Assembly: GCA_027450145.1 (NCBI GenBank)
Contig: DAIDKH010000004.1
Location: 34,826-98,825, forward strand
DNA from: Chthonomonadaceae bacterium
GTDB lineage: Bacteria > Armatimonadota > Chthonomonadetes > Chthonomonadales > Chthonomonadaceae
Length of the DNA: 64,000 nt
Direction: 5' to 3'
This document shows, one piece after another, positions 40,686 to 46,187 of this stretch (within the stretch, counting starts at the first letter, position 1; every line of letters starts with the position of its first letter). The position numbers and the translations under genes were made by a program. The notes below the pieces were generated by a model. The model was not told where the DNA came from and did no database searches. It saw only the letters and a list, made by a program, of their open reading frames with translations.

Positions 40686-40714
40686 TTACGATGCAGAATT
40701 ATATAGGTTAAAAT
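40686..40714 (+). promoter_or_regulatory. Possible sigma-70 promoter of the AhpD-like gene
   Basis: TTACGA (40686-40691) and TAAAAT (40709-40714) are separated by 17 nt, placing a start about 20 nt ahead of the ATG at 40742. Matches to consensus are partial. Confidence 0.35.
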
Positions 40715-40741
40715 GCACCGGTTTACTATGGAGATGGAATT

Positions 40742-41323
40742 ATGACTTGGATTAAAACTATACTGGCAAAGGACTGGGATGAGACGCTACGATCGGCTGT
40801 GTCGTGGCGCAAGAAAATGCCAAAGGAATACGGCACCACGCCCATACCTTCCCTGGCGGTACTGGCAGCGCCAGAAAACGGTGGCGGGATAGTAGAATCT
40901 CACACACTCCTGCCGGAAACCCTGCTCCACGCGTTTTCAACACACACATCATTAATGAATGAAAATCTTCCTTTGAACCGTGCGCAGCATGAGATGATCG
41001 CCACAGTTGTCTCAGTGGCTAACCACTGCTTTTATTGAACAGAATCTCACGCAGAGTTTCTGCGTGCTATTGTTCGTGACGATGACCTTATCACTGCATT
41101 GAAATCGGACTTCCGCACGGCTAAGGTGTCAGCGCTCGATATGGCGATTATGGAGTACGCCGTTAAGTTAACGCTTCACCCTGCGTCCATGGCACGGGAT
41201 GACGTGGAGACGCTTCACGGTCTTGGACTGGACGACACCGGGGTGCTTCAGGTTACACTGATCGCCGCCTGGTTTAATTATATAAACCGAGCTGCCGATG
41301 CCCTCGGAGTTGGCCGAGCTTAA
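40742..41323 (+). CDS. AhpD-like peroxidase-related protein, predicted selenoprotein (in-frame TGA = Sec99)
   Basis: One frame runs from ATG 40742 (GGAG eight nt upstream) to TAA 41321-41323 and is broken only by TGA at 41036-41038. Read through, it is a 193-aa protein of the AhpD/carboxymuconolactone decarboxylase superfamily, peroxidase-related group. The halves join without a gap: RAQHEMIATVVSVANHCFY, [TGA], TESHAEFLRAIV. The second half continues KVSALDMAIMEYAVKLT and ends WFNYINRAADALGV, the family C-terminus. The AhpD catalytic pattern is E-x11-C-x-x-C-x3-H; here it is Glu84, Cys96, TGA99 and His103, so TGA replaces the second redox Cys. A SECIS-like hairpin follows. The protein likely reduces peroxides or alkyl hydroperoxides in the cytosol. 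The alternative is a nonsense pseudogene or read error, made less likely by the exact position and the hairpin. Confidence 0.8.
41048..41066 (+). promoter_or_regulatory. Putative bacterial SECIS element
   Basis: A perfect 8-bp stem (41048-41055 with 41059-41066) carries a three-base loop GTT (41056-41058). The loop G is the 18th base after the TGA. E. coli fdhF has its apical GU at a similar spacing, and bacterial SECIS elements are usually placed 16-37 nt after UGA. The element lies inside the coding sequence, as expected. Confidence 0.7.
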
Positions 41324-41460
41324 ACGTTGGAATTGTCACCGGTACTTTCTAGAAGGTAAAGGCATCCAATTTTTAACGGTTTGTTACACCGCGCTTTAAA
41401 CCGTGGTAACATTTGACTCACGGGACAACCCGCATACCCTCAATTACCAAGGAGATTGAA

Positions 41461-45976: not shown

Positions 45977-46187
45977 TCTTTCTATACAATTATACCGGTA
46001 AGGCTGAAACTATGACACCCAATCGATTTTATTGCTAGTTATGCATGGTGCCTGATTTGCACGCCGAACGGAATGCTGGGCAACCAACAACAGACATTGG
46101 GAGCCGCAGCAGTACATCCTACGTGATCACGTACAAACTTTCGCCTATGACATTTGCCATCTATGCTGTAGGAATCGATTAGCACTC

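What the first reader, a model, noticed from the sequence alone, without database searches (positions are those of the whole stretch)
40742..41323. Predicted selenoprotein: AhpD-like peroxidase with a C-x-x-Sec active site
Seen: one uninterrupted frame apart from TGA 41036-41038, with both sides matching consecutive parts of one AhpD-like family protein. The TGA falls on the second redox Cys: Glu84, Cys96, [TGA]99, His103 keep the E-x11-C-x2-C-x3-H spacing of AhpD. Known: AhpD-like selenoproteins with C-x-x-U have been reported from sequence surveys. Inference: TGA encodes Sec. TGA is a normal stop for fabD, rpmF and groEL here, so wholesale reassignment is unlikely.
Basis: partly seen in the sequence, partly recalled or inferred. 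Interest (0 to 1): 0.93.

Follow-up and report, generated by a model that had tools for sequence, protein, structure and literature searches.

The report
Selenocysteine AhpD-like redox enzyme, Armatimonadota
A bacterium that likely belongs to the phylum Armatimonadota carries a gene whose in-frame TGA codon very likely encodes selenocysteine in the active site of a predicted peroxide- or disulfide-reducing enzyme; the enzyme family was already reported to include selenoproteins, so this is a well-supported new member rather than a new kind of thing.

Summary
One frame (40742-41323, +) is broken only by TGA 41036-41038; the protein read through it matches TIGR01926 (AhpD/CMD) on both sides, with the TGA on the second redox cysteine (E84-x11-C96-x2-[TGA]99-x3-H103). 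The same genome has tRNA-Sec(UCA), selA, selB and a selD with its own in-frame TGA. The nearest relative (89% identical) keeps the TGA in one frame. Of 91 homologue rows read from DNA, 78 have TGA there and 13 Cys. tRNA-Sec hits over 60 bits go with TGA (17 of 19 genomes examined) and not with Cys (1 of 10). A bacterial SECIS-like hairpin starts 9 nt after the TGA; its 18-nt core is identical in 50 of 63 TGA genes encoding the same hexapeptide (0.07 expected from codon use), across several phyla. TGA is an ordinary stop elsewhere in the window. The family was reported as a CxxU selenoprotein in 2005 and is listed as TIGR01926 in a 2026 review: a new member of a known kind. The catalytic role is inferred from fold and motif; selenium incorporation was not measured.

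The parts
40742..41323 (+). AhpD-like (TIGR01926/CMD) selenoprotein gene, 193 residues plus stop with TGA read as Sec
40730..40733 (+). GGAG, likely ribosome-binding site, 8 nt before the ATG
   Evidence: read by eye; no test
40991..40993 (+). codon of Glu84, proton-relay residue by analogy with AhpD Glu118
   Evidence: invariant in 42 rows; analogy from PMC3141380 passages
41027..41029 (+). codon of Cys96, predicted resolving residue
   Evidence: Cys in the TGA rows, moved or missing in most Cys rows
41036..41038 (+). TGA codon, predicted Sec99
   Evidence: TGA in 78 and Cys codon in 13 of 91 rows
41048..41066 (+). upper stem-loop of the predicted bSECIS (arms 41048-41055 and 41059-41066, loop G 41056); its 18-nt core is 41048-41065
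   Evidence: fold -16.3 kcal/mol for 41030-41085; 18-mer identical in 50 of 63 HAEFLR TGA rows; pattern found only in this gene in 291 genomes
41048..41050 (+). codon of His103, proton-relay residue by analogy with AhpD His137 (also the 5' end of the hairpin)
   Evidence: invariant in 42 rows

Best explanation
The gene at 40742-41323 is predicted to encode an AhpD-like (TIGR01926) redox selenoprotein in which TGA 41036-41038 is very likely read as selenocysteine by the tRNA-Sec/SelA/SelB/SelD system whose genes are found in the same genome, probably guided by the hairpin just after the TGA. Shown by calls: the frame, the machinery genes, the conservation of the TGA and of the hairpin core, and the pattern of TGA with machinery against Cys without it. 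Inferred: SelB binds the hairpin through its loop (G 41056) and Sec is inserted. Inferred by analogy with M. tuberculosis AhpD and PA0269: Glu84, Tyr98 and His103 act as a proton relay that activates Sec99; Sec99 attacks a peroxide (or a disulfide of a partner peroxiredoxin); Cys96 then resolves it as a selenenylsulfide that a cellular thiol system reduces.
For: Frame and family. Complete Sec machinery in the genome. Same TGA in 78 of 91 rows, the other 13 being Cys codons. In the phylum, 24 genomes with a TGA gene: selB over cut-off in 22, tRNA-Sec over 60 bits in 20, either in 23; 3 genomes with a Cys gene: none has either. In 29 genomes of the second set: tRNA-Sec over 60 bits in 17 of 19 TGA and 1 of 10 Cys. 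Hairpin core codon bias: 50 of 63 against 0.07 expected, with FNYINR and other control hexapeptides much more varied. Loop G in 77 of 78 TGA rows; distance UGA to loop 16 nt, within the 16-37 nt quoted in PMC13188914. Predicted fold and AhpD-type residues.
Against: No experiment. Rfam reported no SECIS in 40700-41400. Folding energy alone is weak: 387 of 5000 synonymous recodings of the window stretch fold as stably, and only 10 of 78 TGA rows are at the 5% level (0 of 13 Cys rows). Nearly all helix pairs are invariant, so covariation is almost silent; the clearest compensated pair is C-G to T-A in one row, L034. The outer pair C13/N31 pairs in only 10 of 78 rows. TGA genes without strong machinery hits exist: G030 (78% complete) in the phylum set, L059 and L075 in the second set. 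At Rfam's own cut-off of 47 bits the second-set tRNA-Sec counts are less sharp, 18 of 19 TGA and 3 of 10 Cys.
Confidence: 0.94

Rival explanations
1. Sec is inserted as above, but the enzyme works mainly as a thiol-disulfide adaptor or on another substrate (for example dehalogenation), not as a peroxidase in its own right.
For: AhpD is described as an adaptor for AhpC (PMC3141380 passages); 18 AhpC-TSA domain matches in the genome; the fold also covers the debrominase Bmp8 and sestrins; an ORF cluster of amino-acid permease type lies directly upstream in 11 of 60 loci of other phyla (2 of the 11 checked by Pfam).
Against: No partner gene lies beside it in the window: neighbours look like phosphoenolpyruvate carboxylase, a Spy-like protein, isocitrate dehydrogenase and malate dehydrogenase (names by eye). 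PA0269 of the AhpD-like family has weak H2O2-reducing activity.
Confidence: 0.4
2. The TGA is a real stop: a 98-residue truncated protein, or a decayed pseudogene.
For: TGA is a normal stop elsewhere in the window (9 of 39 long ORFs).
Against: The TGA is shared by 78 of 91 rows; the part after the TGA is under purifying selection (29 same, 50 synonymous, 14 non-synonymous codons against the nearest relative) and matches the family to residue 190; His103 lies after the TGA.
Confidence: 0.03
3. The TGA is read as another amino acid (Trp by code 4 or suppression, or Cys) rather than Sec.
For: 40 of 120 listed database homologues carry Trp at this place.
Against: In 91 rows read from DNA the alternatives to TGA are Cys codons only. 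P0002, one of the Trp entries, differs from the TGA gene of G005 at W99 and one other of 168 residues, so that W looks like a gene-caller's code. Nine of 39 long ORFs end in TGA. TGA goes with Sec machinery.
Confidence: 0.02

Closest known systems
AhpD-like protein selenoprotein family, COG2128/TIGR01926, CxxU (PMC1088965, 2005; PMC2398784, 2008; listed in review PMC13188914, 2026)
   Same: Same profile family (TIGR01926), same C-x-x-U with Sec on the second residue, bSECIS after the UGA (passages).
   Different: Those were metagenomic marine sequences (2005, 2008); this one lies in a genome inferred to be Armatimonadota with its whole Sec machinery. The letter-fixed hairpin core across phyla was not seen described in the passages read.
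NF041238 alkylhydroperoxidase-related (seleno)protein AhpD_rel_CFYUT
   Same: Shares the C-F-Y-U-T stretch in its model name with this gene (HCFYUTESH).
   Different: Model of 357 positions; this protein scores 62.1 bits against a cut-off of 175: not a member.
AhpD of Mycobacterium tuberculosis (1gu9, 1knc) and PA0269 (2o4d, 2ijc)
   Different: 10% identity to 1gu9; 16 bits to TIGR00777 against a cut-off of 191.95; Tyr98 in place of His132; Sec in place of the second Cys.
Cys-type peroxidase-related proteins of solved structure (2prr, 2pfx, 6k40, 3c1l, 2oyo)
   Different: The three shown in alignment (2oyo, 6k40, 3c1l) have C-x-x-C, not C-x-x-U.

Membership tests
TIGR01926 peroxidase-related enzyme | Profile score over the curated cut-off | tested here: met
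   118.9 bits, cut-off 81.8
AhpD-like CxxU selenoprotein | In-frame TGA at the second Cys of CxxC with Cys homologues at that place | tested here: met
   78 TGA and 13 Cys codons in 91 rows
AhpD-like CxxU selenoprotein | Sec machinery in the same genome | tested here: met
   tRNA-Sec, selA, selB, selD
AhpD-like CxxU selenoprotein | bSECIS: stem-loop with G in first or second loop place, 16-37 nt after UGA | tested here: met
   loop AGUUU 16 nt after the UGA, G second; no Rfam match
AhpD-like CxxU selenoprotein | Selenium in the protein | not testable with these tools
   needs 75Se or mass spectrometry
NF041238 AhpD_rel_CFYUT | Profile score over the curated cut-off | tested here: not met
   62.1 bits, cut-off 175
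AhpD proper (TIGR00777) | Profile score over the curated cut-off | tested here: not met
   16 bits, cut-off 191.95
AhpD-like mechanism (works like) | Glu, Cys, His/Tyr, Cys/Sec, His relay in the AhpD spacing | tested here: met
   Glu84, Cys96, Tyr98, Sec99, His103; residues of the relay from passages of PMC3141380
AhpD-like mechanism (works like) | Peroxidase or disulfide-reducing activity | not testable with these tools
   needs the purified protein

The most novel reading that the evidence does not exclude
Loss of Sec in this enzyme was not a one-letter swap: the Cys genes of the phylum's Sec-less members belong to a separate branch whose partner cysteine is moved by one place or missing (NCTFYC or NRTxYC instead of NxCxYU), so a differently wired enzyme took over, while the Sec form keeps a near-invariant 18-nt SECIS core across several phyla. 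A Latescibacterota gene with TGC above an intact 18-nt core, in a genome that still has tRNA-Sec, would be a Sec-to-Cys switch caught in the act.
Probability: 0.35. Interest if true: 0.5.

Novelty: new member of a known kind. Interest (0 to 1): 0.42.

Why it matters
Genes like this are cut short at the TGA under the standard code or, it seems, called with Trp under code 4 (one database entry checked against a TGA gene, 40 of the 120 listed carry Trp), so a redox selenoenzyme of Armatimonadota, Acidobacteriota, Planctomycetota and other phyla is easily misdrawn. The letter-fixed 18-nt core gives a simple search key: a 29-nt pattern found only this gene in 291 genomes. The TGA and Cys relatives are natural pairs for asking what Sec buys this enzyme.

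Tried and rejected
Rfam scan of 40700-41400 gave no SECIS family, only a CRISPR-repeat hit at E=9, taken as chance. Folding energy against synonymous recodings gave weak support and is not used as proof. Pair-by-pair covariation says little, because most pairs never vary. Gene neighbourhood: apart from the gene itself, window ORFs clustered only with those of L054, the same-genus record; an ORF cluster of amino-acid permease type lies directly upstream in 11 of 60 loci of other phyla (2 of 11 checked), not in the window, so it is not used for the window's function. The 47-locus and 33-locus clusters look like chained antisense ORFs and were set aside without a test. Reassignment of TGA and a pseudogene were considered and rejected (see rivals). 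Structure libraries 'viral' and plain 'pdb' were not searched; residue distances in the model were not measured.

Rows dropped: of 93 loci (L022-L051, L054-L116), L049 and L113 (gapped copies, apparently one gene, unreadable at residue 99), L051 (distant, 29% identity, turned the wrong way by my script; read the other way it has Cys there) and L054 (same gene as L023) were left out, and L052 and L053 added: 91 rows. Four rows under 150 residues were left out of the tree, 87 kept. For the phylum counts I used genomes whose best match had 89 bits or more (27) and set aside 9 of the 36 with a match: G081 (gapped) and 8 with weaker matches only. In one search I gave 29 of 63 loci: all 10 Cys rows of that set and 19 TGA rows of my choosing. 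The 60-bit line for a strong tRNA-Sec was set after seeing that weaker hits, two of them checked as tRNA-Ser, fill the range below.

Full report
OBSERVATION. The + frame 40742-41323 starts with ATG, ends with TAA and holds one internal stop, TGA 41036-41038. With the TGA read through, the protein matches TIGR01926 over residues 57-190, spanning the TGA, at 118.9 bits (cut-off 81.8), and the CMD domain PF02627. Nine of 39 long ORFs in the window end in TGA, so TGA has not been reassigned wholesale.

MACHINERY. The window lies on contig C4 of a 4.14-Mb, 168-contig genome (96.65% complete). It has tRNA-Sec at C2:37112-37207 (61.4 bits over a gathering score of 47; ARAGORN calls SeC with anticodon TCA), selD at C2:37763-38707 (356 bits, one in-frame TGA in HCAG-TGA-AGKIG), selA at C2:40357-41700 (477 bits) and selB at C33:24533-25606 (313 bits for its first part). 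The other ten tRNA-Sec matches in this genome are below the gathering score, and the two checked are tRNA-Ser.

ORGANISM. One genome of the same family (G008) encodes a protein identical over its matched 188 residues to P0061; its contig is 5119 bases, the length listed for P0061, which NCBI names 'Chthonomonadaceae bacterium'. NCBI places Chthonomonadaceae in Armatimonadota. The phylum is therefore inferred from kinship.

RELATIVES IN THE PHYLUM. Of 151 genomes, 36 have a match. Twenty-seven have a best match of 89 bits or more: 24 with TGA and 3 without stop, with Cys at residue 99 (G006, G008, G068). G081 has a gapped copy that cannot be read, and 8 have weaker matches only. Of the 24, selB is over the cut-off in 22, tRNA-Sec over 60 bits in 20, and at least one of them in 23; the exception, G030, is 78% complete in about 960 contigs. 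None of the 3 Cys genomes has tRNA-Sec at E<=1e-7 or selB over the cut-off; G006 has a full-length selB-like gene at 214 bits, below the cut-off of 242. For scale, 78 of all 151 genomes have selB over the cut-off. The tRNA search used stricter filters, which can lose weak matches.

RELATIVES ELSEWHERE. A scan of named genomes gave 63 loci in Acidobacteriota, Planctomycetota, Gemmatimonadota, Chloroflexota, Poribacteria, Zixiibacteriota, Latescibacterota and others. In all, 91 rows could be read at residue 99: 78 TGA, 13 Cys codons and nothing else. Of 29 genomes then examined for tRNA-Sec, hits over 60 bits were in 17 of 19 with TGA and 1 of 10 with Cys; at Rfam's own cut-off of 47 bits, 18 of 19 and 3 of 10. 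Of 238 database homologues, 120 are listed, and 40 of those have Trp at this place, one (P0006) Leu, and four escaped my motif. P0002 differs from the TGA gene of G005 only at W99 and one other residue of 168, so at least that W looks like a TGA called under code 4; the DNA of the others was not seen.

HAIRPIN. The RNA of 41030-41085 folds into a stem-loop (-16.3 kcal/mol, 5 of 200 dinucleotide shuffles as stable). Taken as AGUUU, the loop starts 16 nt after the UGA with G in its second place, which fits the bSECIS model quoted in PMC13188914 (passages); the predicted minimum-energy form closes one more pair and leaves the loop GUU. Of 63 TGA rows that encode HAEFLR here, 50 use the identical 18 nt CACGCAGAGTTTCTGCGT; 0.07 are expected from the same genes' codon use. 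Six codings occur in all, against 27 codings in 55 rows for the control hexapeptide FNYINR and similar variety in five more controls. Rows with the exact 18-mer come from Armatimonadota, Acidobacteriota, Planctomycetota, Gemmatimonadota, Chloroflexota, Poribacteria and KSB1. The loop G is kept in 77 of 78 TGA rows. Twelve of 13 Cys rows lack the 18-mer. In 291 genomes of the phylum, TGA plus nine bases plus the first 17 nt occurs 21 times in 19 genomes, each time in this gene, and the reversed control gave none. In the own genome the 18-mer with up to 2 mismatches occurs once. Rows are related, so they are not 63 independent draws. Against the hairpin: Rfam found no SECIS, folding energy barely exceeds synonymous recodings (387 of 5000 as stable for the window; 10 of 78 TGA rows and 0 of 13 Cys rows at the 5% level), and nearly all pairs are invariant, so covariation is almost silent. 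The clearest compensated pair is in L034 (GTA...CTA for GCA...CTG). The lower helix was not tested in relatives.

EVOLUTION. A tree of 87 rows needs 4 changes between Sec and Cys. Ten Cys rows, among them all three of the phylum, form one supported branch (98/93) whose motif is NCTxYC or NRTxYC: the partner Cys is moved by one place or missing. L104 (NKTHYC) stands apart without support. Two Cys rows lie among the Sec rows and keep C-x-x-C: L095 (Acidobacteriota, no tRNA-Sec hit at E<=1e-7) and L068 (Latescibacterota, TGC). L068 keeps the 18-mer letter for letter and its genome has tRNA-Sec at 70 bits. The tree is unrooted, so direction is not shown. Against the bold reading: many Cys homologues in the database list have ordinary C-x-x-C (for example RCFYC, RCYYC, GCYYC), so the moved partner Cys is a feature of one Cys branch and not of Cys forms in general. 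On this recheck I lowered the probability of the novel case from 0.45 to 0.35 for that reason.

WHAT IS KNOWN. PMC1088965 (2005; passages) reported 27 AhpD-like CxxU selenoprotein sequences under COG2128 with a predicted SECIS. PMC2398784 (passages) lists 299 and 70 in two AhpD-like CxxU groups. PMC13188914 (2026; passages) lists 'AhpD-like protein, TIGR01926, CxxU' and cites the 2005 paper. Searches for selenocysteine with Armatimonadota (0 papers), selenoprotein with 'peroxidase-related enzyme' (0) and selenoprotein with Armatimonadetes (1 paper, on Planctomycetes genomes, passages seen) showed no report for this phylum; the library lacks most subscription papers, so this is no proof of absence. 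Hence a new member of a known kind.

Noticed in passing
L139 (G000:C18:46021-46350, TGA at 46099): An AhpC-TSA/thioredoxin-like gene of the same genome has an in-frame TGA that would give U-G-T-C (UxxC): a further selenoprotein candidate.
   Followed up: partly
G000:C2:37763-38707 (L018, L140): The genome's selD itself has an in-frame TGA at the HCAG-TGA-AGKIG stretch, so SelD is likely a selenoprotein too.
   Followed up: partly
L068:6001-6567 (SICM01000011.1, Latescibacterota): TGC instead of TGA at codon 99 above a letter-for-letter intact 18-nt hairpin core, in a genome with a 70-bit tRNA-Sec: possibly a recent Sec-to-Cys change.
   Followed up: partly
G006:C263:11762-13642: A full-length selB-like gene below the family cut-off (214 against 242 bits) in a genome with no tRNA-Sec hit at E<=1e-7: a possible leftover or repurposed SelB.
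   Followed up: no
upstream of the gene in L069, L070, L075, L078, L080, L084, L088, L094, L095, L098, L099: One ORF cluster lies directly upstream on the same strand in 11 of 60 loci of other phyla; the two checked (L088, L099) are amino-acid permeases, PF13520.
   Followed up: partly
P0002, P0010, P0007 and other database homologues: 40 of 120 listed homologues carry Trp at the Sec position; where checked (P0002 against L025) this looks like TGA called under code 4.
   Followed up: partly
weaker matches, e.g. G028:C350, G034:C33:62589-63023, G042:C1:1468013-1468369: More distant CMD-type genes with an in-frame TGA occur in the same phylum, in G034 about 1.2 kb from the main-family gene.
   Followed up: no
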